Below, one piece after another: positions 43,216 through 60,961 of a DNA stretch of 64,000 nt. The stretch's first letter is position 1; each line of letters opens with the position of its first letter. This stretch comes from Plantactinospora sp. BC1 (lineage in GTDB: Bacteria; Actinomycetota; Actinomycetes; Mycobacteriales; Micromonosporaceae). A program made the position numbers and the translations under genes. Below the pieces are notes generated by a model. It searched no databases. It saw nothing but the letters and a program-made list of their open reading frames with translations, and was not told the DNA's origin. The DNA lies in NCBI RefSeq assembly GCF_003030345.1, contig NZ_CP028158.1:1984001-2048000 (forward strand), written 5' to 3'.

Positions 43216-44493
43216 GTGGACAGCATCTCCGTGACCAACGAACGTGCCGGGTCGGCGCGGCTGCGGATCGTCGTGGTGTTGAAGACCAACACCGGCGGTC
43301 TCTGGACCGTCCCGCAGGTCGAGGCGCTCCGGGCGCGCGGCCACGACGTGCGGATCGTCCTCCCGCCCGGCCAGGGCCGGCTGACGGCGGAACTCGCGGC
43401 CCGGGGCTTTGCGGTGGTTCCCTCCCCCTTCGACTTCCGGTTCCGGCCGGCGCCCGGCGTACTCCGGGCACTGTGGCGACTGCGCCGGCTGCTGCGCGAC
43501 CTCCGGCCCGACGTCGTCCACTACCACCTGTACGCCTCGGCGATGGCCATCCGGCTCGCCGCCGCCGGACTGGGAGTCCGCAAGGTCCACATGGTCGCCG
43601 GGCCGCTCTTCCTCGAATCGCCGATCATCCGGCGGGTCGAACGACTCCTGTGGCGGATGGACGATCTCGTCGTCTGCGGCACCGAGTTCACCTCCCGGCT
43701 CTACGGGCGACTCGGCTGCCCCCCGGGCCGGCGACCGGTGGTGACCTACGGGGTGGACACCGAACGGTTCAGCGTCGACCACCTGCTGCGCGAGCGCGGC
43801 CAGCCCACGCACCGGCCGGCACACGCGGAGCTGCGCAGGAAGGTCCGCGCGGACCTCGGGGTGGCCGACGACGTGCTGCTGGTCGTCATGGTCGCCTTCG
43901 TCTACCCGCCGCGCCACCTGGTCCACCGGGGCCGAGGCATCAAGGGCCACGACGTCCTGCTGACGGCCTGGGACCGGTTCCACGCCCGCCACCCCCGCTC
44001 CCACCTGCTGCTGGTCGGCGGCGGATGGAACCAGGCCGGCCGGGCGCACCGGGCCGAGCTGATCCGGCGCTTCCGGGTGACCGAGCGCGCCGACGTCACC
44101 TGGACCGATTCGGTCACCGAGGTCCGCGAGGTGTACGCCGCCGCCGACCTGAGCGTCAGCCCGTCGCTCTCCGAGGGGCACGGCGCGGTCGTCGAGGCCA
44201 GCGCGATGGGGGTACCGAGCATCGTCAGCGACGCCGGAGGACTGCCCGAGACCGTCGACGAGTACGCCGGCTGGGTGGTACCGGCCGACGACGCCGCCGC
44301 GCTGGAGGCGGCACTCGACACCGCCGGGCAGGAGTTCCGGGCCGGACGCCTGCCGGCCCGGGGTACCAACGCCCGGCGCCGCGCCGTGGCACTCTTCGAC
44401 AGCGCGGCCGCCGCCACCCGGCTCGCCGCGATCATCGAACAATCCGTCGCGGCCGGGTCGGCCCCGGAGGTCAGGTCAGCAGTTCCCCGTTGA
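43216..44493 (+). CDS. GT4-family glycosyltransferase
   Basis: 425 residues: RIVVVLKTNTGGLWTVPQVE, VHYHLYASAMAIRLAAAGLG, and the donor site VSPSLSEGHGAVVEASAMGV, where the two Glu are one residue closer than in EX7E. Divergent from the minus-strand polysaccharide operon with 135 bases between, so co-regulation is likely. GTG start with TTGAGGAGG upstream. The 3' end overlaps the convergent aldehyde dehydrogenase gene by 23 bases. Confidence 0.88.
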   Translation: MDSISVTNERAGSARLRIVVVLKTNTGGLWTVPQVEALRARGHDVRIVLPPGQGRLTAELAARGFAVVPSPFDFRFRPAPGVLRALWRLRRLLRDLRPDVVHYHLYASAMAIRLAAAGLGVRKVHMVAGPLFLESPIIRRVERLLWRMDDLVVCGTEFTSRLYGRLGCPPGRRPVVTYGVDTERFSVDHLLRERGQPTHRPAHAELRRKVRADLGVADDVLLVVMVAFVYPPRHLVHRGRGIKGHDVLLTAWDRFHARHPRSHLLLVGGGWNQAGRAHRAELIRRFRVTERADVTWTDSVTEVREVYAAADLSVSPSLSEGHGAVVEASAMGVPSIVSDAGGLPETVDEYAGWVVPADDAAALEAALDTAGQEFRAGRLPARGTNARRRAVALFDSAAAATRLAAIIEQSVAAGSAPEVRSAVPR

Positions 44494-46018
44494 CCCGGCG
44501 CGGAATGCCCAGCGGGTTGGCCGCCCGCAACGCCGCCGGCAGCAGCTCGTCGGGCATCCCCTGGTAGGCGACGGGACGCAGGAAACGGCGCACCGCCGTC
44601 ACCCCGACCGAGGTGTGCAGCGAGCCGGTGGTGGCCGGCCACGGCCCGCCGTGCTGCATCGCCCAGGTCACCGCGACCCCGGTCGGCCAGCCGTTCCAGA
44701 TCACCCGGCCGGCCCGCCGGGCCGCGAGGTCGACCACCCGGGCCGCCACCGGGTCGTCGGCGCCCTCGCCGTGCACGGTGGCGGTCAGCGCGCCGGGTAC
44801 GACGTTCAGCGCCGCCAGCAACTCCGCCTCGTCGGCGTACTCCACCAGCAGGGCGGCCGGGCCGAAGCACTCCTCCAGCAGCCGCTCGGCCTGCCGGACG
44901 AGGTCACCGGCCGAGACCGCCAGCAGTTGGGCACCGGCCCGGTATCCGGGCTCGTCGACCGGGGCGGGCGGGACGATCGTCCGTACCCCGGGCACCTCGG
45001 CCAGGGCGGCGGCCTCCTCCTGGTACGCGTCGCGGATCCGGGCGTTCAGCAGCGGGCCGAGCGACGCCGCGCCGACCGCCTTGCCGAGTACCCCCTCCAG
45101 CTGGTGGCCGACGGGCAGGAAGAGCAGCCCCGGCTTGGTGCAGAACTGCCCCGAACCGAGGGTGACCGAGCCGACGAACGCCTCGGCGATCGTGTTGCCC
45201 CGGGCGGCCAGCGCCGCCGGGGTGACCACGGTCGGGTTCAGCGAGCCGAGTTCGCCGTAGAACGGGATCGGGTCGGGGCGGCCGGCGGCGAGGTCGGCCA
45301 GCGCCCGGCCACCGGTGGCGGAGCCGGTGAAGGAGCCGGCCGCGATCGCCGGATGGGTGATCAGGGCCCGGCCGGCCTCCATCCCCCGGACCACCGCGAA
45401 GGTGCCGACCGGGGCACCCCCCTCGGCGAGCGCGTTGGCGACCAGCGCGCCGCAGAGGTCGGAGAGTCCGGGGTGGCCCGGATGCGCCTTCACCACGACC
45501 GGGCAGCCGGCGGCCAGCGCGCTGGCCGTGTCGCCGCCCGGCACCGAGAAGGCGAGCGGGAAGTTCGACGCCGCGTAGACCGCGACCGGGCCGACCGGGA
45601 CCAGCATCCGGCGCAGGTCCGGTCGGGGCGCCGGCAGCGCGTCCGGATCGGGCAGGTCGATCACCGCCTCCAGGAACGACCCCTCGGCCACCGCGTCGGC
45701 GAACATCTCCAACTGCACCCGGGTCCGGGTCAGCTCGCTGTGCAGCCGGGCCGTGCCGAGACCGGTCTCGGCGTCGCCGAGCGCGACGATCTCGTCCCGG
45801 GAGCCCTCCAGCGCGGCGCCGATCCGGCGGAGCAGGTCCGCGCGGGTGGTCAGCGGCAGTGCCGCGTACGCGGGTGCGGCGGCGGCCGCCAGCCGGCAGA
45901 CCGCGTCCAGTCCGTCGGTACCGGTGTGCGGCACCGGATGACCGGTCGGCGCGCCGGTGTAGGGGTTCATCGGCTGGTCGGTGTCCATGCCAGTCTCCGT
46001 CGGTCCAGTGTGGGTCAC
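44471..46018 (-). CDS. Aldehyde dehydrogenase, 2-ketoglutarate semialdehyde dehydrogenase type
   Basis: Up to 515 residues. Catalytic Cys293 (LGSGQFCTKPG) and general base Glu256 (IPFYGELGSLNP) are present, with NADP-type FSVPGGDTASALAAGCPVVV and SFTGSATGGRALADL. The layout (Q-F-C-T-K-P-G, Y-G-E-L-G-S-L-N-P) is that of alpha-ketoglutarate semialdehyde dehydrogenases, the last step of hydroxyproline and pentose oxidation. GTG at 46018 overlaps the redoxin stop (GTGA); an internal ATG at 45988 with GGAG upstream is an alternative start. Confidence 0.9.
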   Translation of the reverse strand: MTHTGPTETGMDTDQPMNPYTGAPTGHPVPHTGTDGLDAVCRLAAAAAPAYAALPLTTRADLLRRIGAALEGSRDEIVALGDAETGLGTARLHSELTRTRVQLEMFADAVAEGSFLEAVIDLPDPDALPAPRPDLRRMLVPVGPVAVYAASNFPLAFSVPGGDTASALAAGCPVVVKAHPGHPGLSDLCGALVANALAEGGAPVGTFAVVRGMEAGRALITHPAIAAGSFTGSATGGRALADLAAGRPDPIPFYGELGSLNPTVVTPAALAARGNTIAEAFVGSVTLGSGQFCTKPGLLFLPVGHQLEGVLGKAVGAASLGPLLNARIRDAYQEEAAALAEVPGVRTIVPPAPVDEPGYRAGAQLLAVSAGDLVRQAERLLEECFGPAALLVEYADEAELLAALNVVPGALTATVHGEGADDPVAARVVDLAARRAGRVIWNGWPTGVAVTWAMQHGGPWPATTGSLHTSVGVTAVRRFLRPVAYQGMPDELLPAALRAANPLGIPRRVNGELLT

Positions 46019-46665
46019 GGGGCGAGTACCAGTTTCCGCAGCGTGCTGTCGAGGGTGGCGGCGTCCACCCCGCCGGGCCAGCCCCGCAGCAGCGTGCCGC
46101 CCTTGGCGACGACGACCACCGCCGGGGGTTCCCGGACCGCGTACGCCCGCGCTATGCGCTGGTCACCGTCGACCAGTACCGGATATTCCACCCGGTGCCG
46201 GCGCAGGTACTCCTGGAGGGCGTCCGGGTCGTCCTCGCCGGCCACCCCGACGAAGACCACCCGGTCGCGGTGCTCGCGGGCCAGTTCGCCGAGGGCGTCC
46301 TGCCGTCCGGCGCAGGTGTTGCACCAGGAGCTGAAGAAGGTCAGCACCACCGGCCGGTCGGCCCACAGCTCCGCCACCGCCAGCGCGCTGCCGTCGGTCA
46401 GCGTACCCGTGACCTTCGGGGCGCCCGGCAGGTCGGTCGGCGCCGGTCGCAGCGCCAGGTCGCTCGGCACCGGGCCGGGCAGTCCGGCGGCACCGCCGGC
46501 CACCGGCGGGGTCGGCTCGGGGTCCGCGCCGTCACCGGTGCAGCCGGTGGCGAGCACCGCGACCGTCACGGCGACCCCGACCAGCGCGGCGAGCCGGCCC
46601 CGGCGCGGCCGACCGGCCCGGTGCGACGCGGCGACGGTGGGCTCGGCGGCTTTCCGGGCGGTCAC
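46015..46665 (-). CDS. TlpA/ResA-like thioredoxin-fold lipoprotein
   Basis: 216 residues. A basic n-region of about 25 residues and a hydrophobic stretch lead to lipobox LATGC. The thioredoxin domain carries the redox motif CNTC (VLTFFSSWCNTCAGRQDAL) and cis-Pro region REPPAVVVVAKGG. It is a membrane-anchored extracytoplasmic thiol-disulfide protein. It is coupled by GTGA overlaps both to the lipoprotein gene before it and to the aldehyde dehydrogenase after it. Confidence 0.87.
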   Translation of the reverse strand: MTARKAAEPTVAASHRAGRPRRGRLAALVGVAVTVAVLATGCTGDGADPEPTPPVAGGAAGLPGPVPSDLALRPAPTDLPGAPKVTGTLTDGSALAVAELWADRPVVLTFFSSWCNTCAGRQDALGELAREHRDRVVFVGVAGEDDPDALQEYLRRHRVEYPVLVDGDQRIARAYAVREPPAVVVVAKGGTLLRGWPGGVDAATLDSTLRKLVLAP

Positions 46666-47102
46666 GACGGCACCACCGCGACCAGCGCGGGCCCCTCGCT
46701 GTCGTCCCTGGTCAGCGGGATCGGCCGGCGGTCGTCGACGATCAGCCGGTACGCGTCCCGGTCGGCCACCGAGACCGGGACGGCGAACTCGCAGTACGTC
46801 GGGATGCGCGCCACCTCCAGGTCCTCGGCGAAGGTCCGGACCGACGTGCCGGGCGGCAGTTCGCCCTCGGCCAGGGTCTCGCCGTCGCCGTCCACCACCC
46901 GGTAGGCCGCCCTGTTGTGGAAGTGCGTGTACGGCCCGGTGCCGGCGCACTCGACGCCCTCGGGCCGGATGTTGATGTCCCGGACCAGCACCCGGACGGT
47001 CATCGCGGCCCGTGGCTCCTCGTCGTCGCCGCACCCGGTCAGCGGTGCGAGCAGCAGCAGCGGCAGTACCGCCAGCAGGTGGCGGTAGCGGACCCGCCGC
47101 AT
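46662..47102 (-). CDS. Small lipoprotein of unknown function
   Basis: 146 residues. MRRVRYRHLLAVLPLLLLAP is a lipoprotein signal with LTGC (Cys24). The mature part is a likely beta-rich domain with two Cys (GVECAGTG and IPTYCEFAV) that may form a disulfide, which would suit the neighbouring CxxC redoxin. No family recognised. ATG with CGGAGGAAAG upstream; longer in-frame extension lacks a signal. It follows the metalloprotease gene by 80 bases. Confidence 0.72.
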   Translation of the reverse strand: MRRVRYRHLLAVLPLLLLAPLTGCGDDEEPRAAMTVRVLVRDINIRPEGVECAGTGPYTHFHNRAAYRVVDGDGETLAEGELPPGTSVRTFAEDLEVARIPTYCEFAVPVSVADRDAYRLIVDDRRPIPLTRDDSEGPALVAVVPS

Positions 47103-47182: not shown

Positions 47183-49225
47183 TCAGGACTTCTGGACGCG
47201 GCACTGCTTGGTGACGGTCTTCGTCGGGTCGCTCTCCGAGGTGGCGGTGAGCTTGACGACGCCGGTCTGGGTGGCCGACGGGGTCGCCCCCACCGAGACC
47301 CGGACCGGGGTGGACTTGCCGAACCCGGCCGTGGCCAGCGCGTTCGGCACCTCGACCCGCCAGCCCTTGCCGTTCACCTCCGCGGTGAGCCGGTAGACGT
47401 CCGACTTGAGGTAGGCCGTCGCGTTCTCCGGGTGCGCCTGGCCGCCGGCCGCGTACGCCCCGGTGTTGGTCAGGGTGAACGAGCAGGTGACGCCCCGGTT
47501 GGTCGGCCGGGTCGCGGTGGTCACCTCGCCGGCCGAGAGCGCCACGCCGTGGCTGCTCGGTCCGGCGCCGTCGAGCGAGCGCACCGCCACCGTGTACGAC
47601 AGCACGCCGTCGCCGTTGCGCTTCAGGTCGAGGACGTAGAAGTGCAGCCGGTTGGCCTCGTCCACGTACTCGTACTCGCTGCCCGACCGGGTGCCGGCGT
47701 GGAACAGCGCGTCGGAGAGCTGCCGGTAGTCCCCCATGGTGATCTTCTGCGGGGTGCCGTCCGGCTGGTAGAAGTCGATCATGTCGATGTCCTGCGGGTT
47801 GGCGTCGACCACCCAGACGAAGGGAGCGCTGTCGGCGTTCTTCGTCTTGGAGAGCAGCACGCCGCTGTCCGGGGTGAACGAGTCCGCACCCATCCGGTCC
47901 ACGACCTCGACGGTGTAGTTGTTGAAGCTGCCGCCGTCGCAGAGCGGGTCGGTGCTGGTGTCGCAGGCCGGCGACCGGTCCCGGTTCATCGCGATGTTGA
48001 TCCCGGTGAGCCCCTTCGGGCCGGCGTCCACCGCCCGGGCGGTCACCGTCGCCACCACCATGCCGGAGGTGGCCAGCGCCTCCCGGCTCAGCCGCAGCAG
48101 GTGCTCCTCACCGAGCAGGCCGATCTTCATCTTGTCCCGGACGGTGTGCAGCGAACCCATCGAACCGCCGTTCACCGGCGGGATCTGCCACCGGGTGTGC
48201 GGACCGCCGGGCCCGTTGAACGAGCCGCGCGACATCATGCTCCAGATGCCGGTGTACGCCCGCCGCAACGGTGTGCCGTACGGGTTGTTGTAGTTGTCGC
48301 CGATGCTGAGCAGGTGGCTCAGCTCGTGCGCGTACACGCCCATGCCGGAGCTCTCGGCCTGGGTCGAGGAGCCGCCACCGGCGTTCGGCCAGATGGTCGA
48401 GGCCGCCTTCCAGGAGGTCCACTCGACATACCGGGTACGCGCGTAGTTCGGCAGGTTCGGGTCCGGCGGACCCCAGGCGTCCGGCACGTCCTCCTTGGTC
48501 TGGAACATCATCTGGCCGAACTCCTGCCAGGTGGACGACTCGTCCTGCCCAGCGGAGAGGATGAAGACCAGCTCGAACGAGTCGGCCACCTCGTCGCCGA
48601 CCGCCGCCCGCCAGGCGCCCAGCCCGTCGGTGCGGATGTTCTTGGCACACTGCTCGCCGCTCGGGCAGGCGCCCGGGTTGAAGCCGTTGTCGATGCCGTA
48701 CTGGTAGGACTTCGCCGGCATCTCGTACGGGCCGAAGCCGGTCAGGTCCACCCCGTACCGGCCGTTGGAGTCCTGCATCCAGTACTCGTGCAGGGTGTGG
48801 CCCTTGTTCAGCTCGTTGGGCTTGTTCAGGAAGTCGGTGTAGAAGCCCGCGACCTGGTCGCGCGGGATGTTCGCCGCCGTCGACTGGGGGTTGCCGAAGA
48901 CCGTCGACCGGGGCCGCTGGGTGACCACGAACGGCTGGTCCGGATAGTCGAGGGTGACCAGAGCGATCTTGAAGTTGCGGACCGAGCCGGCCACGGTCGG
49001 GTCGGCCCAGTTCGTGTTCGGCGGCGTGACGTAGTCGTCCCAGGTCATGCCGTCCGGGTTCTCCCAGGACTGCGGGTCGAGCACGTCGAACGGGCCGGTG
49101 CCGCCGGCCGGGTTGCCCGGTGCGGCCGAGGCCGGCGTCGTGGCGACACCGGCGACCAGTGCCGCCGCGAGCGTCGCCGCCAGCGCCGACCGCCACGCGG
49201 TGCGTCTGGTGGACAGTAGGTGCAT
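47183..49225 (-). CDS. Secreted M6-like metalloprotease (copy 1)
   Basis: 680 residues. A signal peptide (to about ASA-APG) precedes a catalytic domain with zinc motif HELSH (His300, Glu301, His304), followed by LLSIGDNYNNP where Asp may be the third ligand, then WSMMSRGSFNGPGGPH supplying a Met-turn-like segment. The C-terminal about 110 residues form an Ig-like domain (VTCSFTLTNTGAYAAGGQAH). Relatives are M6 (immune-inhibitor-A-like) proteases. A paralogue lies at 54380-56416. The ATG follows GAGAGGTGA. A gap of 259 bases separates it from the epimerase gene. Confidence 0.87.
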   Translation of the reverse strand: MHLLSTRRTAWRSALAATLAAALVAGVATTPASAAPGNPAGGTGPFDVLDPQSWENPDGMTWDDYVTPPNTNWADPTVAGSVRNFKIALVTLDYPDQPFVVTQRPRSTVFGNPQSTAANIPRDQVAGFYTDFLNKPNELNKGHTLHEYWMQDSNGRYGVDLTGFGPYEMPAKSYQYGIDNGFNPGACPSGEQCAKNIRTDGLGAWRAAVGDEVADSFELVFILSAGQDESSTWQEFGQMMFQTKEDVPDAWGPPDPNLPNYARTRYVEWTSWKAASTIWPNAGGGSSTQAESSGMGVYAHELSHLLSIGDNYNNPYGTPLRRAYTGIWSMMSRGSFNGPGGPHTRWQIPPVNGGSMGSLHTVRDKMKIGLLGEEHLLRLSREALATSGMVVATVTARAVDAGPKGLTGINIAMNRDRSPACDTSTDPLCDGGSFNNYTVEVVDRMGADSFTPDSGVLLSKTKNADSAPFVWVVDANPQDIDMIDFYQPDGTPQKITMGDYRQLSDALFHAGTRSGSEYEYVDEANRLHFYVLDLKRNGDGVLSYTVAVRSLDGAGPSSHGVALSAGEVTTATRPTNRGVTCSFTLTNTGAYAAGGQAHPENATAYLKSDVYRLTAEVNGKGWRVEVPNALATAGFGKSTPVRVSVGATPSATQTGVVKLTATSESDPTKTVTKQCRVQKS

Positions 49226-49450: not shown

Positions 49451-49486
49451 GACCCGCCGAATCGGACGGTCCGGGACCGGCGGGTC
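49451..49486 (-). terminator. Stem-loop at the end of the hydroxyproline operon
   Basis: GACCCGCCG (49451-49459) pairs with CGGCGGGTC (49478-49486), the latter covering the epimerase stop codon. A smaller palindrome CGGTCC-G-GGACCG sits inside (49467-49479). This may end or attenuate the hydroxyproline transcript before the metalloprotease gene. Confidence 0.4.
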
Positions 49487-50489
49487 AGATCCGGAAGCCC
49501 TCCGGGAACGGATCCTCCGGGTCGAGCAGGTACTGCGCGGTACCGGTGATCCAGGCCCGGCCGGTGACCGTCGGTACCACCGCCGGCAGCTCGCCGACCG
49601 TGGTGGTGCCGACCAGCCGGCCGGTGAAGCGGGTCCCGATCACCGACTCGTTGACGAACGGCGTCTCCAGCCCGAGCAGGCCACGCGCGTGCCGCTGGGC
49701 CATCCGGGCCGAGGTGCCGGTGCCGCACGGTGACCGGTCCACCCAGCCGGGGTGGATCACCACCGCGTTGCGGGCATCCGCACCGTCGGTGCCGTCCTGC
49801 ACCACCTGGACGTGCCGGCAGTCGTCGATCGCCGGGATCGTGGGGTGCCGGGGCGGCGCCTGCTCGTTGATCGCGTCCATGATCCGCAGCCCGCGCGCGA
49901 TCAGCTCCGGCACCGCCGCCGGCTCGACCGGCAGCCCCAGGTCGGCGGCGTCCACGATGGCGTAGAAGTTGCCACCGAAGGCCATGTCGTAGCGGATGGT
50001 GCCGATCTCCCCGCCCACCTCGACCTTCCGGTCGGCGGCGAGCAGGAACGACGGCACGTTCCGCAGCGTCACCCCGGTCGCCCGGCCGTCCCGGACCGCG
50101 ACGTCCACGCTGACCAGCCCGGCCGGGGTGTCCAGCCGGATCGTGGTGACCGGCTCGACGACCGGCACCATCCCGGTCTCCACCAGCACGGTGGCCACCC
50201 CGATGGTGCCGTGCCCGCACATCGGCAGGCAGCCGGAGACCTCGATGAACAGCACCCCGACGTCGGCGTCCGGCCGGGTCGGCGGCTGGAGGATCGCCCC
50301 GGACATCGCCGAGTGGCCGCGCGGCTCGCACATCAGCAGCCGGCGCAGCCCGTCCCGGTCCCGCTCGAAGAGCCGCTTGCGCTCCAGCATGGTGTCGCCG
50401 GGCAGCACCCCGACACCACCGGTGATCACCCGGGTCGGCATCCCCTCGGTGTGCGAGTCGACGGCATGCAGGACCAGCCGGCTACGCAT
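49485..50489 (-). CDS. 4-hydroxyproline 2-epimerase (proline racemase superfamily)
   Basis: 334 residues. Both catalytic cysteines are present: Cys91 (SGCLPMCGHGTIG) and Cys255 (DRSPCGTGTSARM). A Cys/Cys pair fits a racemase/epimerase and argues against the Thr-containing trans-3-hydroxyproline dehydratases. It would turn trans-4-hydroxy-L-proline into cis-4-hydroxy-D-proline. Proline racemase is an alternative on sequence alone; the neighbouring dehydrogenase, deaminase and semialdehyde dehydrogenase favour hydroxyproline. It overlaps the DapA-family gene by eight bases. Confidence 0.9.
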   Translation of the reverse strand: MRSRLVLHAVDSHTEGMPTRVITGGVGVLPGDTMLERKRLFERDRDGLRRLLMCEPRGHSAMSGAILQPPTRPDADVGVLFIEVSGCLPMCGHGTIGVATVLVETGMVPVVEPVTTIRLDTPAGLVSVDVAVRDGRATGVTLRNVPSFLLAADRKVEVGGEIGTIRYDMAFGGNFYAIVDAADLGLPVEPAAVPELIARGLRIMDAINEQAPPRHPTIPAIDDCRHVQVVQDGTDGADARNAVVIHPGWVDRSPCGTGTSARMAQRHARGLLGLETPFVNESVIGTRFTGRLVGTTTVGELPAVVPTVTGRAWITGTAQYLLDPEDPFPEGFRI

Positions 50490-52787: not shown

Positions 52788-53116
52788 CGGACTCCCTCTC
52801 CGGCACGCAACCCGGACGGGTCCCCCGGCTCCGCGCCGGTTTCCACCACGTCGCCGGGCTCGGCCGGGCGCAGGCAGGCCCGCACACCCGGCTCGCCGTT
52901 GCAGACGACCAGGCAGTCGAAGCAGATCCCGATGCCGCAGAAGACGCCGCGCGGCCGGCCGGCGAACCGGGTCCGCCGGGTGCTCCGGCGACCGGCGGCC
53001 AGCAGCGCCGCCGCCAGCGTCTGGCCGGCGCGCACCGGTACCTCCCCGCCGTCGACGGTGATCGTGAAGCCGTCCGGACCGCCGGCCCGGCCGTCGGCGG
53101 GCTCAGGCGGCGGCAC
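52784..53116 (-). CDS. D-hydroxyproline dehydrogenase, small [2Fe-2S] subunit
   Basis: About 110 residues resembling HcnA/OoxC-type ferredoxin-like subunits: FTITVDGGEVPVRAGQTLAA, then cysteines in GVFCGIGICFDCLVVCNGEP and RACLRP. GTG at 53116 is chosen because GGAG lies seven bases before it; ATG at 53131 would add five residues. It overlaps the DAO-type gene by 14 bases. Confidence 0.85.
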   Translation of the reverse strand: MPPPEPADGRAGGPDGFTITVDGGEVPVRAGQTLAAALLAAGRRSTRRTRFAGRPRGVFCGIGICFDCLVVCNGEPGVRACLRPAEPGDVVETGAEPGDPSGLRAGEGVR

Positions 53117-54302
53117 CGGCGGTCTCCACATCGGACGAGAAGCGGGCCGGGGCGAACGGGTGCAGCGGCAGGTCGGTCGGCTCACCGGTCACCACCTGGG
53201 CGACCAGGTGCCCGGTGGCCGGCGCCAGCCCGATCCCGGCGCCCTCGTGCCCGTGCGCGTGCACCAGCCCGGGGACGCGCGGGTCGGCGCCGATCACCGG
53301 CAGGTGGTCCGGGGAGAACGGCCGGAAACCGTGGTAGACCCGCATCGCCCGGACCGCCGCCAGCGGTGGGAAGAGCCGTACCGCGCCCTGGGCCAGCCGG
53401 CGGACCGCCTCGGCGTTGTGGCGCCGGTCGAAGTCGACGAGTTCCCGGCTGGCGCCGATCAGGATGGTGCCGGCCGGGGTGCCCTCGACGACCGTCGAGG
53501 TCTGCAACCCGGCGTCGCCGCTGGCCACGTTGTCGAGATAGTCGGCCGAGTAGACCTTGTGCCGGACCAGCGGCGGCACCGGCTCGGTGACCAGGATGAA
53601 GCCCCGGCGCGGCGCGACCGGGGTGTCGGCGCCGGCCAGCCCGGCGAGCCGGCCGGCCCAGGCTCCGGCCGCGTTCACCACCTGCCCGGCGGCCACCGGA
53701 CCGGCACCGGTCCGCACCCCGACCACCCGGCCGACGTCGTCCCGGAGCATCGCGGTGACCTCGGTGCGCAGCCGCACCTCGGCGCCGTGCTGCCGGGCGG
53801 CGGCCAGCAGCGCGACCGTCGCCTTCGCCGGCATGAGCTGCATGTCCTGCGGATAGAAGAGGCCGCCGGCCAGCTCCGGGGTGATCGCGGGCTCGCGCTC
53901 GCGCACCCCGGCCGGATCGAGCGGCTCGACGAGTACGCCCGCCGCCGCCTGTGCCCGGGCGGTCGCCCGCAGGCCGGCCAGCCCGGCCGCGCCGTCGGCG
54001 CCCGGACCCACCCCGGTGACCACCAGGCCGCCCTTGGGCTCCAGCTCGATGTCGCCGTACCGGTCGCCGAGGTCGGCCGCCCAGCGCCGCCAGAGACCGT
54101 TGCTGAGCAGCGCCAACTCCAGTTCCGGGCCGGGCAGCTTGTCCGAGACCAGCAGGTTGCCCTCGCCGGAACCGGTGGCACCGGCGACCAGACCGGCCCG
54201 CTCCAGTACGACGACGGTCAGCCCCCGCCGGGCGCAGGCGTACGCGCAGGCCGCGCCGACGATACCGGCGCCGACCACCACCACGTCGAAGCTGCCCGCC
54301 AT
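53103..54302 (-). CDS. D-hydroxyproline dehydrogenase, DAO-type FAD catalytic subunit
   Basis: 399 residues of the D-amino-acid/glycine oxidase family. N-terminal FDVVVVGAGIVGAACAYACA binds FAD; GGLVVTG, the VVNAAGAWAGRLAGLAG motif and C-terminal YHGFRPFSPDHLPVIGADPR are typical of HcnC/OoxB-type subunits. It would oxidise cis-4-hydroxy-D-proline to the pyrroline. Its ATG lies 77 bases after the second metalloprotease gene, so the two may share a transcript. Confidence 0.88.
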   Translation of the reverse strand: MAGSFDVVVVGAGIVGAACAYACARRGLTVVVLERAGLVAGATGSGEGNLLVSDKLPGPELELALLSNGLWRRWAADLGDRYGDIELEPKGGLVVTGVGPGADGAAGLAGLRATARAQAAAGVLVEPLDPAGVREREPAITPELAGGLFYPQDMQLMPAKATVALLAAARQHGAEVRLRTEVTAMLRDDVGRVVGVRTGAGPVAAGQVVNAAGAWAGRLAGLAGADTPVAPRRGFILVTEPVPPLVRHKVYSADYLDNVASGDAGLQTSTVVEGTPAGTILIGASRELVDFDRRHNAEAVRRLAQGAVRLFPPLAAVRAMRVYHGFRPFSPDHLPVIGADPRVPGLVHAHGHEGAGIGLAPATGHLVAQVVTGEPTDLPLHPFAPARFSSDVETAGAAA

Positions 54303-54379: not shown

Positions 54380-56416
54380 CTACCGGTTCACCCGGCAGGT
54401 GGCCGTCGCCGTCCGGCTCGGATCACTCTCCGATCGGGCCGTCAGGGTGACCCGGCCGACCTGGGTCGCCCCGGCGGTGGCGGTGGCCACCGCCCTGACG
54501 TTCACGGTCCGGCCGAACTCGGCCGTGGTCAAGGCGTTGGGCAGGGTGACCGCCCAGCCCGCCCCGTTGACCGTGGCGGAGAGCCGGTAGACGTCCGCGC
54601 GCAGGTACGCCGAGGCGTCCTCCGGGTGCGCCTGGCCACCGGCGACGTACCGGCCGGTGTTGGTGACGGCGAAGGTGCAGGTCGCGCCCCCGCCGGTCGG
54701 GCTGCCGGTGGGGCTGCCCGAGGCGGCCGCCCCGACGCCCCGCACCGAACTGCCGGCCCCGTCGAGGTGCCGCACGCCCAGGGTGTACGACAGCACACCG
54801 TCCGCGCCGACCCGCCGGTCGAGCACGTAGAAGTGCAGCCGGTTGGCGGTGTCGACGTACTCGTACTCGCTGCCGGAGCGGGTGCCGGCGTGGAACAGCG
54901 CGTCGTTGAGCTGCCGGTAGTCGGCGATCGTCCGCTTCACCGGGGTACCGTCCGGCCGGTAGTAGTCGACCATGTCGATGTCCTGCGGGTTGGCGTCGAC
55001 GACCCAGGTGAAGCAGGTGTAGCCGCAGGTGTTCGTCTCGGCGTCCTTGTTCCTGGCCAGCAGCACCCCGTTGTCCGGGGTGAACGAGTCCGCGCCGATC
55101 CGCTGCACGGTCTCCAGGCTGTACCAGTTGTAGACCGGGGTGCCCGGGCAGAGCGGGTCGGTGTTGATGTCACAGGCCGGGGTGAGGTCCCGGTCCATGC
55201 CGATCCGGACGCCCTGGATGTCCCGGGCCGCCGGCACCGCCGTACGCGCCTTGACGGTCACCACCGCGACACCTGTGGTGCGCAGCGCCTCCCGGGAGAG
55301 CCGGAGCACCTGCGCCTCGTCGATGTGCCCGAGCTTGAGCTTGCTGCGCAGGGTCTGCCCGGCCGGCATCGCCGCGCCCTGGGCCGCCGGCACCACCCAG
55401 CGGTTGTGCGGACCGCCCGGGCCGTTGAACGAGCCCCGGTCCATCACGTCCCAGGTCCCCGACCCGACCCGCCGGTACGGCGACACGTACGGATTGTTGT
55501 TGTTGTCGGCGATCCCGAAGGTGTGCGCGATCTCGTGCGTGATGGTGCCGGAACTCTCGCCCTGCCGCATGCTGGACGAGCCCCAGAGCTGGGAGCCGGC
55601 CTTCCAGGAGGTCCAGTCGACATAGCGGGACCGCACCCAGTTCGGCAGGTTCGGGTCCGGTGGGCCCCAGGCGTCCGGCACGTCCTCGCGGGTCTGGAAC
55701 ATCATCTCGCCGAACTCCTGCCAGACCGACGTCTCGTCGTAGCCGGCGTAGACCCGCAGCACCAGGTCGAACCGGTTGCGCACGTCGGCGCCCTCGGCGG
55801 CCCGCCACAGCGCGTCCACGTCGGCGTCGAGGTTGCCGTTGCAGGTGGAGCCGGCCGGGCAGCCGGTGCCGTTCTGCCCGATGTCGTTGAGCCCGTACTC
55901 GAACTGCTTGCGGGGCAGCCGGTACGGGCCGAACGGGGTGAACTCGACCCCGACCCGCCCGTTGGTCTGCTCCATCCAGTATTCGTGCACCGTGTGGCCG
56001 TGGTTGAGCGCGCTCGGCGTACCCCAGAAGTCGGCGTAGAACCGGGCCACGTCGGCCCGGGCCACCGGGTTGACCTGCGGGTTGCGGAACGGGTCCGAGC
56101 CCCGGTTCTGGGTGATCACGAACGACTGGTCGGGATAGTCGGCGGCGACCAGGGCGATCCGCAGCTTGCGCTGGCTCGGCTGGCGGCTCGGGTCGGCCCA
56201 GTTCGCGCCGGGCACCGGCCGGTAGTCGTCCCAGGTCATCGTCTCCTGGTCCTGCCAGGTCTGCGGGTCGACCGGGTCCAGTGGCGCGGCCGCGGTGCCC
56301 GGGCCGGCCTGGGCCGGTCCGCTCGCGGGCCCGGTGAGCAGGGCGGAGGCGGCGACGACCGCGACGGCCGCGGCGAACGCCCTGCGGAGCTGGTCTGTGC
56401 GGGTGGCGCGACGCAA
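54380..56416 (-). CDS. Secreted M6-like metalloprotease (copy 2)
   Basis: 678 residues, clearly paralogous to the gene at 47183-49225 along its whole length. Signal peptide to about AQA-GPG; zinc motif HEIAH (His294, Glu295, His298) followed by TFGIADNNNNP; WDVMDRGSFNGPGGPH; C-terminal Ig-like domain (ATCTFAVTNTGRYVAGGQAH). It has extra cysteines around NTCGYTCFTW not seen in copy 1. TTG start with GAAGGAG five bases before it; a nearby ATG is out of frame. It heads the minus-strand hydroxyproline gene set. Confidence 0.87.
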   Translation of the reverse strand: MRRATRTDQLRRAFAAAVAVVAASALLTGPASGPAQAGPGTAAAPLDPVDPQTWQDQETMTWDDYRPVPGANWADPSRQPSQRKLRIALVAADYPDQSFVITQNRGSDPFRNPQVNPVARADVARFYADFWGTPSALNHGHTVHEYWMEQTNGRVGVEFTPFGPYRLPRKQFEYGLNDIGQNGTGCPAGSTCNGNLDADVDALWRAAEGADVRNRFDLVLRVYAGYDETSVWQEFGEMMFQTREDVPDAWGPPDPNLPNWVRSRYVDWTSWKAGSQLWGSSSMRQGESSGTITHEIAHTFGIADNNNNPYVSPYRRVGSGTWDVMDRGSFNGPGGPHNRWVVPAAQGAAMPAGQTLRSKLKLGHIDEAQVLRLSREALRTTGVAVVTVKARTAVPAARDIQGVRIGMDRDLTPACDINTDPLCPGTPVYNWYSLETVQRIGADSFTPDNGVLLARNKDAETNTCGYTCFTWVVDANPQDIDMVDYYRPDGTPVKRTIADYRQLNDALFHAGTRSGSEYEYVDTANRLHFYVLDRRVGADGVLSYTLGVRHLDGAGSSVRGVGAAASGSPTGSPTGGGATCTFAVTNTGRYVAGGQAHPEDASAYLRADVYRLSATVNGAGWAVTLPNALTTAEFGRTVNVRAVATATAGATQVGRVTLTARSESDPSRTATATCRVNR

Positions 56417-56734
56417 CGCATCTCCTTCGGGTCGGGGGCTCGGGTGCCGGGGTGTTCGGGTGCCGGGTGCTCGGACCGGCCGGGGCGCGGGAGGTCGCGG
56501 CCCCGGTCGGCGGATGTCGCAAGCACGGTAAGGACAGCGACGTTTCCGGGTCTTCGGACAGATGCAGGAAGCCCGCTGGGCGGATCAGGACTTCTGTCGG
56601 GACTTGTGCCGTACGCCCCGAAGCACTTGCGTCGCGGGCCGGTGCCGTCGGAGGGTGAGGACCGGCGGTGCACCACGTCGGGCCACCCGACGGGGTGGGC
56701 CGGCGGCCGGCCACGGGGAGGATCAGGGGAAGGC
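56417..56734. promoter_or_regulatory. Divergent control region of metalloprotease 2 and the PucR-type regulator
   Basis: 318 bases without a gene. Features: a 16-base tandem repeat (TCGGGTGCCGGG at 56440-56451 and 56456-56467) in the presumed 5' leader of the protease gene, and a pair of direct repeats GGACTT at 56588-56593 and 56600-56605, a 12-bp period that could be a regulator site. Promoter hexamers are not obvious. Confidence 0.4.
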
Positions 56735-57967
56735 ATGCACACGGAGCTGCAACGGATCGTCGACGCGGTGGCGGCCCGGGTGGGCCGGCCGGCGCTGATC
56801 GAGGACCGCCGGCAGCGGGTGGTCGTGTACAGCGAGCACACCGGACTGATGGACGACGTACGCAAGACCTCCATCCTGCGCCGGCACACCACGCCCGAGG
56901 TCATCTCCTGGTTCCACGACGTCGGCATCATGAAGGCCCGTACCCCGGTCCGCACCCCGGCCTGCCCGGAGCTGGACCTGCTGCCCCGGCTCTGCGTGCC
57001 GATCACCCACCACGACCTGCTGCTCGGCTTCGTCTGGTTCATCGACGCCGACGGCGGGATGACCGATGACGACATCGAGACCGTGACCCGGGCGATGTCC
57101 GACCTCTCCCTCGCGCTCTACCGGGAGAACCTGCTCGGCGAGCTGGCCTCGCAGCGGGAGGCGGAGGCGGCCCGGACGCTGCTGGTGGACAGTCCGGAGA
57201 TCCGGGCCGAGGCGGTCCGTTCGCTGCTCGCCGAGGGGGTGGTCGCCGCCGACGGGCCGGCCAACGCCGTGGTGGCGCAGCTGGTGCCGGCCCGGGGGCA
57301 GGTACTCGACGAGGTGGCCCGGATCGCCCTGGAACAGGTGCTGGTGGCCACCCGCCGCTGGGTCGGGGTACGCGAGGCGCTGCACCTGGTCCGGCACGAC
57401 CAGGGAGTACTGCTGATCTGCGGTGCTCAGGGTGCCGGCCGGCCCTCCGCCGAGGCGACCGCCAGGCACCTGAGCGAGGCGCTGCACAAGGCGACCCGGA
57501 GCCTGCCCTCGGTGGCCCGGGTGGTGGTCGGGATCGGCGAGCCCCGGCCCCGGCTGGCCGAGGTGGTGCACGCCTACGACGAGGCGCTCCAGTCGGCCCG
57601 GGTGGGTGGGCAGCTCTCCGCGCTCGGCCCGATCATCGCCTGGTCGAACCTCGGCATCTACCGGATGCTGTCCCGGATGAACGGCCAGCACCTCGACGTC
57701 GCGGGCGTGCACCCGGGGCTGGAGCGGCTGCTGCGCGACGACTCCAACCAGGTGCTGCTGGAGACGCTGGAGGCGTACCTCGACCTGGCCGGGAACGCGC
57801 ATGCCACGGCCGAGCAGCTGCGGCTGCACCGCACCACGCTCTACTACCGGCTGCACCGGGTGGAGCAGCTCGCCGAGACCGACCTCAAGGACGGCAACGA
57901 GCGGCTCTGCCTGCACCTGGCGCTGAAACTCGGCCGGCTCACCGGTCACTACCGACCGGCGAACTGA
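56735..57967 (+). CDS. PucR/CdaR-type transcriptional regulator
   Basis: 410 residues. The N-terminal part is GAF-like (LIEDRRQRVVVYSEHTGL to LGFVWFIDADGGM). The middle is a CdaR GGDEF-like region (VGIGEPRPRLAEVVHAYDEA) and the C-terminus is the PucR-family helix-turn-helix (AYLDLAGNAHATAEQLRLHR, TTLYYRLHRVEQL). Family members activate catabolic genes in response to pathway intermediates. It is divergent from the protease/hydroxyproline set and 57 bases upstream of the GH127 gene, making it the likely local activator. ATG with AGGGGAAGG upstream. Confidence 0.9.
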   Translation: MHTELQRIVDAVAARVGRPALIEDRRQRVVVYSEHTGLMDDVRKTSILRRHTTPEVISWFHDVGIMKARTPVRTPACPELDLLPRLCVPITHHDLLLGFVWFIDADGGMTDDDIETVTRAMSDLSLALYRENLLGELASQREAEAARTLLVDSPEIRAEAVRSLLAEGVVAADGPANAVVAQLVPARGQVLDEVARIALEQVLVATRRWVGVREALHLVRHDQGVLLICGAQGAGRPSAEATARHLSEALHKATRSLPSVARVVVGIGEPRPRLAEVVHAYDEALQSARVGGQLSALGPIIAWSNLGIYRMLSRMNGQHLDVAGVHPGLERLLRDDSNQVLLETLEAYLDLAGNAHATAEQLRLHRTTLYYRLHRVEQLAETDLKDGNERLCLHLALKLGRLTGHYRPAN

Positions 57968-58024
57968 CCCTCCGGCCCCGTCCCGGCCGCGACCCGCGGC
58001 GTCGGCAACACCGAGGAGGCCACC

Positions 58025-60961
58025 GTGAGCGAGCACCTGTCCCGACGGGACGCCCTGCGCCTCGGCGCGCTGGCGGCCACCGTACCCGCCGCCGCCTCGG
58101 TCGGGCCGGCCCGGGCCGACGCGGCGGCGCCGACCGGCGACGCCGGGACCGGCGCGGACCCCGGACCGCTCCCCCGGCCCGGCTGGGTCGCCGACAACTG
58201 GGTGGTCAAGCCGTTCGCCCTCAACCAGGTGGCGCTGCGCGACGGGATCTTCCAGCAGAAGCGGGACCGGATGCTCAACTACGCGCGGAACTATCCGGGC
58301 ACCGGGGGCGTCCTCGACGGCCCCGACCGGATGCTGCACCTGTTCCGGGCCAACGCCGGGCTGCCCGCCCCGGGCACCTGGCCGGGCGGCTGGGACACCC
58401 CGAACCACCTGCTCCGGGGCCACTTCACCGGGCACTACCTGACGATGCTGGCGCAGTGCTACGCCGACACCGGCGAGGAGATCTTCCGGGAGAAGCTCGA
58501 CTACCTGGTGACCGAGCTGGGCAGGTGCCAGCGGGAACTCGACCGGCGCAACTTCGGCCGGGTCGCCGGCCGCGCGGGTCGGGCCGTCCGGCTCGGCGAC
58601 CCGCACCCCAACCAGTACGTCCTGATGCCGGCCGGAATCCTCGACGGCGTCACCGAGCTCACCGTCGCCACCTGGGTGAACCTGGCGGCCGCGCAGACCG
58701 CCGCCCGGATCTTCAGCTTCGGCGCCGGGCCGCAGTCCTACCTGTCGCTGACCGCCCGGATCGCCGCCGGTGCCGGCCCGAGGTTCGCGATCACCACCGG
58801 CGGCAGTGCCGGCGAGCAGCGGGTCGACGCCACCGTGCCCGTCCCGGTCGGCGAGTGGGCGCACCTGGCGGTCACCCTCTCCGCCGCCGACGCCACCGCC
58901 CGGATCTACCTCGACGGTGCCGAGGTCGGCGCCGGCGCCGTGACGCTCGGCCCGGCCAACCTCGGCCGGACCACCGACAACTGGATCGGCCGCTCCCCCG
59001 CCAACAACGATCCGCTGCTCACCGCGACAGTGGACGACCTGCGGATCTACGACCGGGCACTCGGCCCGGACGAGATCCGCGCGCTCGCCGCACCGGACGG
59101 GACGGCCGGCACGTCGACCGCGGCCACCCCGCTGGCCTGGTACCGGTTCGAGGAGGAGGGCGAGACCGCCGCCGACCACTCGGGCAACGGCCACGCCGCC
59201 ACGATCGTCGGCACCGCCCACCCCGGTTTCCTGGCCGCGTTCCCGGAGGGGCAGTTCAGTCGCCTCGAACCGCCGACGTTCCAGCCGAACAGCGGGCCGA
59301 ACGCCGTCTGGGCGGTCTGGTACACCTGCCACAAGATCATGCGCGGCCTGCTCAACGCGTACCAGTTGGTCGGCAACGAGGAGGCGCTGGCGATCGTCTT
59401 CCGGATGGGCGACTGGGCGCACAGTCGACTCAGCCGGATCAGCCGGGCCGACCTGGACCGGATGTGGGACATCTACAGCGCCGGTGAGGCCGGCTCGATG
59501 AACGAGGTGATGGCCGAACTCTCCGCCCTGGCCCCCGACCGCGAGCGACGCGCCCGGTACCTCGACACGGCGAAGGCGTTCACCTTCAGCACCCTCTTCG
59601 CCGCCTCCCTGGCACAGCGGGACGAACTCGCCGGCCGGCACGCCAACCAGTACATGGCGCCGAACATCGGCTACCTGCGGATCTTCGAGCGGACCGGCGA
59701 GCGCGACTACCACCGGGCGGCCCGGAACTTCTGGTCCATGGTGGTGCCGCACCGGATTTTCAGCAACGGCGGTGCCGGGCAGAGCGAACACTTCCGGGCG
59801 CGCGGGATCATCACCTCCGGGTTCACCTCCGGCAGCGATCCCCGGCACGCCGAGACCTGCTGCGCGTACAACATGCTCCGGCTGACCCGGAACCTCTTCT
59901 TCCACGACCCGGACCCGGCGTACCTGGACTACTACGAGAAGGCGCTGCACAACCAGATCCTCAGCTCCCGCCGGGACGTCGACAGCGTCACCAGCACCGA
60001 GGTGACGTACCACCAGAACATGTGGCCCGGCCGGTCACGGCGGATCGGCAACGTCGTGGAATACAGCCGGTACGGCGGCAACGGAAGCTGCTGCAACGGC
60101 ACCGGCCTGGAGAGCCACACCAAATACCAGGAGACGATCTACTTCCGCTCGGCGGACGACTCCGCCCTCTACGTCAACCTCTTCATCGCCTCCGTGCTGA
60201 CCTGGCCGGAACGGGGCTTCGTGATCAGCCAGGAGACGGCCTATCCGACCGAGGGCGCCAGCACGCTCCGGTTCGACCGGGGGCACGGCCGGCTGCGGGT
60301 GAAGCTCCGGGTGCCGTCCTGGGCCGGCGCCGACTACACCGTCCGGGTCAACGGTCGCCAACAGCACGTGAAGGCGGTGCCGGGCAGCTATCTCACCCTC
60401 GACCGGTGGTGGCGGGAGGGCGACCGGATCGACATCTCGATGCCGCTGCGCTTCCGGGTGGAGAAGGCTCTCGACGACAGGTCGGTACAGTCCATCATGT
60501 ACGGTCCGACGCTGATGGTCGTCCGGGACGCCACCCCCAGCTACCGCGAGTTCACGTTCTTCCCCACCCTCGGGCTGGACGGCGACCTCGGCAGGGCGAT
60601 CCAACCCACCGGGACGCCGATGCACTTCAGCACCCACGGCTACCTGCTGGCCCCGTACTACGTCTCCGACCCGGTGCCGGGAGAGTTCAACGCCTACCAC
60701 CCGTACGTCCGGCGGGTCGAGCCGGAGGTGGTGTTCGGGTCGGTCCGCACCGGCGTACCCAACGACGGCCTGCGGGACGCCGACGGCGAGACCTTCCTCG
60801 ACCGGGTCTGGGCGGCGGCGCCGTTCCGCCGGCACGGCGACTTTCTCCGTACCGTCAGGGACGTCTCGGACGAGTGGCTGGCGGCCGGCCGGCACACCGC
60901 CGCGCAGCGCCGGGCCATCCTCGTCGCGGCGGTCCGTGCCCGCCGGGACCTGGCGCACTGA
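58025..60961 (+). CDS. Tat-exported GH127 beta-L-arabinofuranosidase with inserted LamG-like domain
   Basis: 978 residues. Tat signal (SRRDALRLG). The GH127 (DUF1680) barrel is split by a LamG/concanavalin-like segment (about residues 180-395). Zn/nucleophile residues fit HypBA1: Glu610, Cys612 (HAETCCAYN), Cys689 and Cys690 (NGSCCNGTG), with the same 2- and 77-residue spacings as Glu338, Cys340, Cys417, Cys418. The acid/base Glu is not assigned with certainty (Glu588 is a candidate). It would remove beta-L-arabinofuranose from hydroxyproline-linked arabino-oligosaccharides. GTG start with GAGGAGG upstream. Confidence 0.88.
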   Translation: MSEHLSRRDALRLGALAATVPAAASVGPARADAAAPTGDAGTGADPGPLPRPGWVADNWVVKPFALNQVALRDGIFQQKRDRMLNYARNYPGTGGVLDGPDRMLHLFRANAGLPAPGTWPGGWDTPNHLLRGHFTGHYLTMLAQCYADTGEEIFREKLDYLVTELGRCQRELDRRNFGRVAGRAGRAVRLGDPHPNQYVLMPAGILDGVTELTVATWVNLAAAQTAARIFSFGAGPQSYLSLTARIAAGAGPRFAITTGGSAGEQRVDATVPVPVGEWAHLAVTLSAADATARIYLDGAEVGAGAVTLGPANLGRTTDNWIGRSPANNDPLLTATVDDLRIYDRALGPDEIRALAAPDGTAGTSTAATPLAWYRFEEEGETAADHSGNGHAATIVGTAHPGFLAAFPEGQFSRLEPPTFQPNSGPNAVWAVWYTCHKIMRGLLNAYQLVGNEEALAIVFRMGDWAHSRLSRISRADLDRMWDIYSAGEAGSMNEVMAELSALAPDRERRARYLDTAKAFTFSTLFAASLAQRDELAGRHANQYMAPNIGYLRIFERTGERDYHRAARNFWSMVVPHRIFSNGGAGQSEHFRARGIITSGFTSGSDPRHAETCCAYNMLRLTRNLFFHDPDPAYLDYYEKALHNQILSSRRDVDSVTSTEVTYHQNMWPGRSRRIGNVVEYSRYGGNGSCCNGTGLESHTKYQETIYFRSADDSALYVNLFIASVLTWPERGFVISQETAYPTEGASTLRFDRGHGRLRVKLRVPSWAGADYTVRVNGRQQHVKAVPGSYLTLDRWWREGDRIDISMPLRFRVEKALDDRSVQSIMYGPTLMVVRDATPSYREFTFFPTLGLDGDLGRAIQPTGTPMHFSTHGYLLAPYYVSDPVPGEFNAYHPYVRRVEPEVVFGSVRTGVPNDGLRDADGETFLDRVWAAAPFRRHGDFLRTVRDVSDEWLAAGRHTAAQRRAILVAAVRARRDLAH

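What the first reader, a model, noticed from the sequence alone, without database searches (positions are those of the whole stretch)
44471..60961. Candidate extensin (hydroxyproline-rich glycoprotein) utilisation locus
Seen: two secreted M6-like metalloproteases, a GH127 arabinofuranosidase, and genes for epimerase, three-part D-hydroxyproline dehydrogenase, DapA-family deaminase and semialdehyde dehydrogenase, plus a PucR-type activator between the arms. Known: GH127 HypBA1 releases L-arabinose from Hyp-linked beta-L-arabino-oligosaccharides, and the epimerase, dehydrogenase, deaminase and ketoglutarate-semialdehyde dehydrogenase form the bacterial trans-4-hydroxyproline route. Inference: the locus couples outside proteolysis and deglycosylation of plant extensins to complete oxidation of the freed hydroxyproline. 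I know of no described locus joining all these steps.
Basis: partly seen in the sequence, partly recalled or inferred. Interest (0 to 1): 0.85.

Follow-up and report, generated by a model that had tools for sequence, protein, structure and literature searches.

The report
Plant hydroxyproline-glycoprotein utilisation locus in actinobacteria
This stretch of an actinobacterial genome looks like a kit for eating plant cell-wall proteins rich in hydroxyproline: secreted proteases, an enzyme that strips off arabinose, and the enzymes that burn the freed hydroxyproline; similar kits recur in other actinobacteria, but the substrate has not been tested.

Summary
The genes are there, with corrections. 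PucR and the "GH127" are both on the plus strand, 57 bp apart. The glycosidase keeps all catalytic residues but is nearest to GH146 structures, not HypBA1; GH146 includes enzymes that cut Araf-beta1-Hyp. In the window's genus (Plantactinospora) it is linked to the Hyp genes in only 3 of 5 genomes with the epimerase, at two positions. The linkage recurs elsewhere: 9 of 15 Glycomyces, 2 of 5 genus g7, 11 of 80 named loci (Microbacterium, Jiangella, one Streptomyces), and 10 of 12 Microbacterium genomes carrying that enzyme, usually with an oligopeptide importer and often with proline peptidases. In other loci (18 Streptomyces, 2 Dactylosporangium) the neighbour is an M9 collagenase, absent from this genome. 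Best reading: a hydroxyproline-burning core with exchangeable front ends, here one for arabinosylated plant glycoproteins. Extensin cleavage by M6 is inference. New variant of a known kind.

The parts
44471..45988 (-). Aldehyde dehydrogenase, putative alpha-ketoglutarate semialdehyde dehydrogenase step
   Evidence: Aldedh 1.6e-42; KGSADH-type models far under cut-off; homologues sit in Hyp clusters of Glycomyces, Microbacterium and Jiangella
46015..46665 (-). Thioredoxin/TlpA-ResA-like lipoprotein
   Evidence: AhpC-TSA 2.9e-13; gene model; lipobox by eye
46662..47102 (-). Small lipoprotein of unknown function, co-conserved with M6a
   Evidence: gene model; follows M6a in g1, g11 and G137
47183..49225 (-). 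Secreted M6-family metalloprotease M6a
   Evidence: TIGR03296 158.1 bits, cut-off 110.8; HELSH at residue 300; signal peptide by eye
49485..50489 (-). 4-hydroxyproline 2-epimerase (proline racemase family, both catalytic Cys kept)
   Evidence: Pro_racemase 1.8e-130; C91 and C255 invariant in alignment A3; that these are the catalytic Cys is recalled
50482..51378 (-). [quoted passage not shown]
   Evidence: DHDPS 6.7e-51; gene model
51375..52787 (-). D-hydroxyproline dehydrogenase alpha subunit (FAD/NAD, Fer2_BFD)
52784..53116 (-). D-hydroxyproline dehydrogenase gamma subunit (2Fe-2S)
   Evidence: Fer2_4 1.3e-25
53103..54302 (-). D-hydroxyproline dehydrogenase beta subunit (DAO)
   Evidence: DAO 1.5e-71
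54380..56416 (-). Second secreted M6-like metalloprotease M6b, first gene of the minus-strand run
   Evidence: 57% identical to M6a; TIGR03296 94.9 bits, below cut-off; HEIAH at residue 294
56552..56598 (.). Candidate operator: two CTTCKGNC copies 39 bp apart (56552, 56591)
   Evidence: 2-5 copies in the same intergenic region of 7 of 10 loci examined; inference, no binding data
56735..57967 (+). PucR-family regulator
   Evidence: HTH_30 4.6e-19, GGDEF_2 1.9e-7
58025..60961 (+). Secreted (Tat-like signal, by eye) GH146-type beta-L-arabinofuranosidase with inserted LamG domain
   Evidence: PF07944 1.2e-75, Laminin_G_3, Glyco_hydro127M; nearest structure 5opj; E588, E610, C612, C689, C690 kept
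27938..29740 (+). S8 subtilase, a possible displaced member: its homologue lies beside or inside the locus in two other Plantactinospora genomes
   Evidence: Peptidase_S8 7.2e-15; homologues in L021/L092 (G092) and L022 (G032)

Best explanation
A nutrient locus for plant (or algal) proteins whose hydroxyprolines carry beta-L-arabinofuranose, extensins being the likeliest. Proposed steps: secreted M6 proteases open the protein chain; the Tat-secreted, LamG-bearing GH146-type enzyme removes arabinose from Hyp; peptides or free Hyp enter the cell by systems not identified in this window; L-Hyp is epimerised to D-Hyp, oxidised by the three-subunit dehydrogenase, deaminated to ketoglutarate semialdehyde and oxidised to 2-oxoglutarate. 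PucR probably switches it on. Shown by sequence: gene content, conserved active sites, recurrent linkage. Inferred: substrates, the KGSA step, secretion, regulation, extensin cleavage by M6. Relatives show the same core with an oligopeptide importer, Xaa-Pro peptidases and an enzyme without an evident signal peptide, that is, import first and deglycosylation inside.
For: Hyp core genes. GH146 catalytic residues kept (residues defined in PMC10850190, passages); GH146 Bll4HypBA1 and XeHypBA1 act on Araf-beta1-Hyp. A PF07944-family gene within 11 kb of the epimerase in at least 14 of 150 family genomes (match list was cut), in three genera with different gene orders. 11 of 80 named loci: Microbacterium 5, Jiangella 5, Streptomyces 1; an Opp ATPase (45% identity or more) is present in 10 of those 11 against 13 of the other 69 (Fisher 6e-6) and S33 in 6 of 11 against 4 of 69 (2.5e-4). 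In the Microbacterium genus 12 of 198 genomes have this enzyme near full length at 60% identity or more, the query's own genome included; all 12 have the epimerase (29 of 198 overall; hypergeometric 1e-11) and in 10 of 12 the two are about 1 kb apart. Jiangella carries the window architecture (Tat-like signal in 5, LamG insert checked in L124) beside its Hyp genes. No M9 collagenase in this genome. In G032 the glycosidase lies at the other end of the same locus.
Against: Within the genus only 3 of 5 epimerase-bearing genomes have the glycosidase in the locus; P. endophytica does not. Its 70-74% homologues in G021, G091 and G137 are not beside Hyp genes. M6 occurs without the epimerase in 32 of 56 genomes, and G113 keeps M6a-Lpp-TlpA-AldDH without it. 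GH146 also includes arabinan and beta1,3 enzymes, so family membership does not fix the substrate. 14 other Microbacterium genomes have a 48-51% homologue; 13 of them lack the epimerase and in the last (G558) it is over 1 Mb away. In the phylum sample five further genomes have both genes but far apart. No transporter or arabinose gene was recognised between 44471 and 60961; an ABC ATPase lies just beyond at 63028, its substrate not examined. Clusters share ancestry, so counts are not independent events. No expression or activity data.
Confidence: 0.6

Rival explanations
1. Collagen or gelatin utilisation: M6 proteases act on animal collagen, whose Hyp is burned by the core; the glycosidase is an unrelated neighbour.
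For: S. coelicolor HypR controls Hyp genes together with an M9 collagenase (PMC6608401, passages); a Colwellia collagen gene cluster joins M9, peptidases and Hyp genes (PMC7883544, passages); an M9-type gene lies in 20 of 80 named Hyp loci. M6 is linked to the Hyp genes more steadily (5 of 5) than the glycosidase (3 of 5) in this genus.
Against: 16 of 150 family genomes have any PF01752 match (13 over the cut-off), all listed; this genome and the other genomes with the M6-Hyp or GH127-Hyp arrangement (23 in all, counted) are not among them. GH146-type enzyme and M9 never share a named locus (0 of 80; Fisher 0.057, not significant). Beta-L-arabinofuranosidase has no role on collagen that I know of (recalled).
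Confidence: 0.2
2. A standard Hyp operon with unrelated neighbours: protease and glycosidase are there by chance or by general regulation.
For: The Hyp core is common (66 of 150 family genomes have an epimerase hit above 60% identity, three of them split or partial); patchy linkage of the glycosidase within the genus.
Against: Recurrent linkage in several families with different orders; M6 within 10 kb of the epimerase in 12 of 24 genomes that have both, where chance gives about 0.06 (my estimate, descent ignored).
Confidence: 0.12
3. The glycosidase works on pectic arabinan or arabinogalactan side chains, and the locus serves plant cell-wall material in general rather than Hyp-arabinosides.
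For: Nearest structure is 5opj, which I recall as BT0349; BT0349 is described as active on arabinan-derived oligosaccharides; the LamG-bearing GH146 Bll3HypBA1 is beta1,3-specific.
Against: Does not explain why the gene recurs with Hyp catabolism, an oligopeptide importer and proline peptidases.
Confidence: 0.25
4. The epimerase is a proline racemase and the operon burns proline or D-proline.
For: Top NCBIfam score is PRK13969 proline racemase (361.5, cut-off 556), slightly above 4-Hyp epimerase PRK13971 (350, cut-off 376).
Against: Nearer its cut-off for the Hyp epimerase; the DapA-type deaminase and three-part dehydrogenase match the Hyp route of SCO6289-6293, where deleting the epimerase abolished growth on Hyp but not on proline (PMC6608401, passages).
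Confidence: 0.05

Closest known systems
HypR regulon of Streptomyces coelicolor (SCO6289-6294 plus M9 collagenase SCO5912)
   Same: Same beta-gamma-alpha-DapA-epimerase order and a co-regulated secreted protease (PMC6608401, passages)
   Different: GntR repressor and a collagenase elsewhere on the chromosome; no glycosidase among the regulon genes seen; here PucR, M6 and a GH146-type gene adjoin the core
Colwellia collagen utilisation gene cluster
   Same: Secreted protease, peptidases, Hyp epimerase, dehydrogenase, deaminase in one cluster (PMC7883544, passages)
   Different: M9 collagenase front end, gammaproteobacterial, no arabinofuranosidase mentioned in the passages seen
Bifidobacterium longum HypAA-HypBA2-HypBA1 system and Bll4HypBA1 (GH146)
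   Same: Removes beta-L-Araf from Hyp in HRGPs; ABC importer in the cluster (PMC7263609; PMC10850190, passages)
   Different: Imports beta-Ara2 to use the arabinose; the passages seen describe no Hyp catabolism
Xanthomonas euvesicatoria XeHypAA/BA2/BA1
   Same: HRGP deglycosylation; a prolyl oligopeptidase gene, a pseudogene there, lies beside it (PMC6085000, passages)
   Different: GH121-based; no Hyp catabolic genes mentioned in the passages seen
Svx metallopeptidase of Pectobacterium
   Same: Secreted metalloprotease shown to cleave extensins (PMC13164431, passages)
   Different: Described there as a two-domain gluzincin; relation to M6 not tested here

Membership tests
GH127 (HypBA1 type) | Closest characterised structure is HypBA1 | tested here: not met
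   3wkw 7.3e-10 against 5opj 8.3e-71; that 3wkw is HypBA1 is recalled
GH146 | Closest to GH146 structures over the catalytic and middle domains | tested here: met
   5opj 242.5 bits, 8k7y 125.7 bits; that 5opj is BT0349 and 8k7x/8k7y are Bll3HypBA1 is recalled
GH146 | Acid/base Glu, Zn Glu and Cys, Cys nucleophile | tested here: met
   E588, E610, C612, C689, C690, aligned with E694, E723, C725, C804, C805 of Bll3HypBA1 (alignment, residues; matched by spacing)
GH146 | Beta-L-arabinofuranosidase activity | not testable with these tools
   -
Bacterial trans-4-hydroxyproline pathway | Epimerase with two catalytic Cys | tested here: met
   C91, C255
Bacterial trans-4-hydroxyproline pathway | Three-subunit D-Hyp dehydrogenase | tested here: met
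   DAO, Fer2_4, Pyr_redox_2/Fer2_BFD in order; activity untested
Bacterial trans-4-hydroxyproline pathway | DapA-family deaminase | tested here: met
   DHDPS family 6.7e-51; activity untested
Bacterial trans-4-hydroxyproline pathway | Alpha-ketoglutarate semialdehyde dehydrogenase | tested here: inconclusive
   Aldedh family, but 79.2 bits against cut-off 750 and 60.9 against 770 for the specific models
M6 metalloproteases (TIGR03296) | Score over cut-off and HExxH | tested here: inconclusive
   M6a met; M6b has HEIAH but 94.9 bits, under 110.8
Collagen utilisation cluster | M9 collagenase | tested here: not met
   no PF01752 match in the genome
B. longum/Xanthomonas HRGP system | GH121 and GH43 partners | not tested
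   no search for these families was made

The most novel reading that the evidence does not exclude
Across actinobacteria the hydroxyproline-burning core is a shared chassis carrying exchangeable front ends for different Hyp proteins: M9 collagenase for animal collagen, or a GH146-type enzyme with an oligopeptide importer, prolyl aminopeptidase and aminopeptidase P for arabinosylated plant glycoproteins. In the Glycomyces/Microbacterium form the glycopeptide is imported whole and stripped of arabinose in the cytoplasm; in Plantactinospora and Jiangella stripping is outside. To my knowledge this would be the first complete route from HRGP to central metabolism.
Probability: 0.45. Interest if true: 0.75.

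Novelty: new variant of a known kind. Interest (0 to 1): 0.6.

Why it matters
Extensins and other Hyp-rich glycoproteins are abundant, resistant plant wall proteins, and how soil and plant-associated bacteria use their protein part is little described. If right, one locus type explains complete use of both sugar and amino acid, gives a genome marker telling plant-Hyp users from collagen users, and offers candidate enzymes (GH146, prolyl peptidases, M6) for taking HRGPs apart.

Tried and rejected
HypBA1-type GH127 assignment: rejected on similarity to solved structures. Plain collagen reading: lowered by absence of M9. M6a structure prediction: with only four sequences the model was useless (mean pLDDT 32.3), so no fold search was made; phmmer found no solved relative of M6a at 0.01. 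Phylum sample of 296 genomes: besides G000, five genomes (G172, G277, G310, G342 of family f4 genus g50; G416 of f8) have both the enzyme and the epimerase but hundreds of kb apart or on different contigs, so no linkage there; the wider result came. Recurring unknown neighbours looked like local lineage synteny and were not used. A GH127-family tree places window-type and Jiangella-type together at 94/91, not a starred branch; it does not settle how many times linkage arose. A candidate operator upstream of the glycosidase: one copy in G032, a weaker one in G058, none in the 71-base stretch (57960-58030) covering the short gap before it in the window; too weak to claim. A GH36 glycosidase abutting the dehydrogenase in G037 would, as an alpha-galactosidase, fit Ser-alpha-Gal of extensins, but the only NCBIfam hit at 1e-10 is to beta-L-arabinopyranosidase, far under its cut-off, and it is a single case.


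Full report
WHAT IS THERE. The window lies at 1984001-2048000 of an 8.33 Mb single-contig genome. Gene models from ORF and codon statistics give a minus-strand run of ten genes: M6b, D-Hyp dehydrogenase beta, gamma, alpha, DapA-type deaminase, epimerase, M6a, small lipoprotein, thioredoxin-like lipoprotein, aldehyde dehydrogenase. Five neighbouring pairs overlap by 4-14 bases. Divergent from it, on the plus strand, come PucR and, 57 bp later, the glycosidase. PucR was not found in the first scans because I looked on the minus strand.

THE GLYCOSIDASE. PF07944 matches in two pieces around an inserted LamG domain; the genome has five PF07944 genes in all. Nearest solved structures are 5opj (8.3e-71), 8k7y (1.6e-35) and 8k7x (5.5e-35), with HypBA1 3wkw at 7.3e-10. 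The paper on Bll3HypBA1 (PMC10850190, passages) places that LamG-bearing enzyme and BT0349 in GH146 and reports that GH146 Bll4HypBA1 and XeHypBA1 cut Araf-beta1-Hyp. Its catalytic residues correspond to E588, E610, C612, C689, C690 here; they are kept in 30 of 32 aligned rows, paralogues included, and the other two rows are cut by a locus end. The protein's start carries SRRDALRLG followed by a hydrophobic stretch and looks like a Tat signal (my reading; no predictor was run).

CONSERVATION IN THE FAMILY. The same 150 family genomes were searched with M6b, the glycosidase, the epimerase and dehydrogenase alpha and with PF07944 and PF01752; a PucR search failed and was not repeated. Of 7 genomes of the window's genus seen in the listings (G000, G032, G058, G078, G092, G104, G113), 5 have the epimerase, all 5 with M6 beside it, and 3 of the 5 with the glycosidase in the locus; G104's contig is cut short, but its best glycosidase hit anywhere is 37% identical. 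In G058 an Xaa-Pro dipeptidyl peptidase (S15) sits between PucR and the glycosidase. In G032 the glycosidase is at the other end, between aldehyde dehydrogenase and the lipoprotein genes, with an MFS gene and a subtilase. In all, 24 genomes have both M6 and an epimerase at 60% identity or more; in 12 they are within 10 kb (g1 5, g11 3, g32 2, g37 1, g22 1), in G137 18 kb. Thirty-two of 56 M6 genomes lack that epimerase, so M6 is not tied to Hyp.

A SECOND FORM OF THE LOCUS. In Glycomyces and g7 the glycosidase belongs to one co-directional cluster with Opp genes, S33, M24B, GntR, dehydrogenase, deaminase, epimerase and aldehyde dehydrogenase; some stretches fetched begin inside it, so SBP5 was seen in g7 only. 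The Glycomyces enzyme also matches GH146 structures best (5opj 3.3e-55, HypBA1 1e-7) but lacks an evident signal peptide (by eye). G067 and G098 of g7 keep S33 and the core without the glycosidase. The S33 protein is closest to 8jgm/8jgn (the latter the AT3g61540 entry), with weaker proline iminopeptidase hits; the M24B protein to aminopeptidase P. A review says S33 prolyl aminopeptidases could break down Pro- and Hyp-rich peptides (PMC9147577, passages).

NAMED ACTINOBACTERIA. One scan of genome contigs with the epimerase alignment A3 gave 80 loci. A GH127-family enzyme at 40% identity or more is in 11: Microbacterium L105, L119, L121, L131, L135; Jiangella L124, L128, L141, L146, L155; Streptomyces sp. 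NBC_01549 L158, where the enzyme is cut by the locus end but long in the genome. L124 repeats the window architecture, Tat-like signal and LamG insert. L131 has a further enzyme with the GH127 C-terminal domain just past the cluster, and L121 a relative of it. M9-type collagenases are in 20 of 80 (18 Streptomyces, 2 Dactylosporangium), 13 at 46% identity or more and 7 at 24-26%, one of the seven (L110) checked by Pfam. No locus has both (Fisher 0.057, not significant). M9 also lies about 4-5 kb from the epimerase in G036, G064 and G095. In 198 genomes of the Microbacterium genus, 12 have the enzyme at 60% identity or more nearly full length (one, G624, with an in-frame stop); in 10 it is about 1 kb from the epimerase, in G459 10 kb, in G552 190 kb; all 12 are among the 29 with the epimerase (hypergeometric 1e-11, not corrected for descent, and the query's own genome G444 counts). 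G548 had only fragments and was left out. Fourteen further genomes have a 48-51% homologue; 13 of these lack the epimerase.

REGULATION. The intergenic region between PucR and the diverging operon holds repeated CTTCKGNC words: 2 in G000, G058, G092 and G031, 4 in G048 and G068, 5 in G010, 1 in G032 and G021, 0 in G077, at spacings of 23-24 and 36-41 bp; the window as a whole has 0.34 per kb. The pattern was derived from nine of these ten regions. This is a candidate operator only.

COMPARISON. Protease plus Hyp catabolism is known for collagen: the HypR regulon (PMC6608401, passages) and the Colwellia cluster (PMC7883544, passages). Hyp-arabinoside removal is known from Bifidobacterium and Xanthomonas (PMC7263609, PMC10850190, PMC6085000, passages). 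An extensin-cleaving metallopeptidase is known (PMC13164431, passages). HRGP degradation has been proposed from genomes of Latescibacteria (PMC4454575, passages). I found no paper joining arabinofuranosidase and Hyp catabolism in one locus in searches. This is limited: only open-licence papers are held, and searches listed 15 of 35, 20 of 97 and 15 of 119 matching papers.

VERDICT. The Hyp core is near certain; the coupling of a GH146-type enzyme to it is a real, recurrent actinobacterial arrangement; the extensin substrate and the role of M6 are plausible and untested. New variant of a known kind.

Noticed in passing
window 29769-44493: A block that includes sugar-nucleotide and glycosyltransferase genes (UDP-sugar dehydrogenase, nucleotidyl transferase, epimerase, glycosyltransferases) separates the locus from the subtilase gene 27938-29740, whose homologue adjoins it in P. 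endophytica (L092), as if inserted there.
   Followed up: partly
L051, L116, L147 and the M9-bearing Streptomyces loci: M9 collagenase genes lie next to Hyp clusters, an apparent collagen counterpart of the same core.
   Followed up: partly
   Followed up: no
L105:10999-12000: A delta-1-pyrroline-2-carboxylate reductase-like gene (below NCBIfam cut-offs) beside the epimerase in Microbacterium suggests trans-3-hydroxyproline is handled too.
   Followed up: no
L029:10940-13006: A GH36 glycosidase abuts the Hyp dehydrogenase in G037, between an oligopeptide importer and the core.
   Followed up: partly
window 46015-49225: M6a, a small lipoprotein and a thioredoxin-like lipoprotein stay together even where the Hyp epimerase is absent (G113) or 18 kb away (G137), a module of unknown role.
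   Followed up: partly
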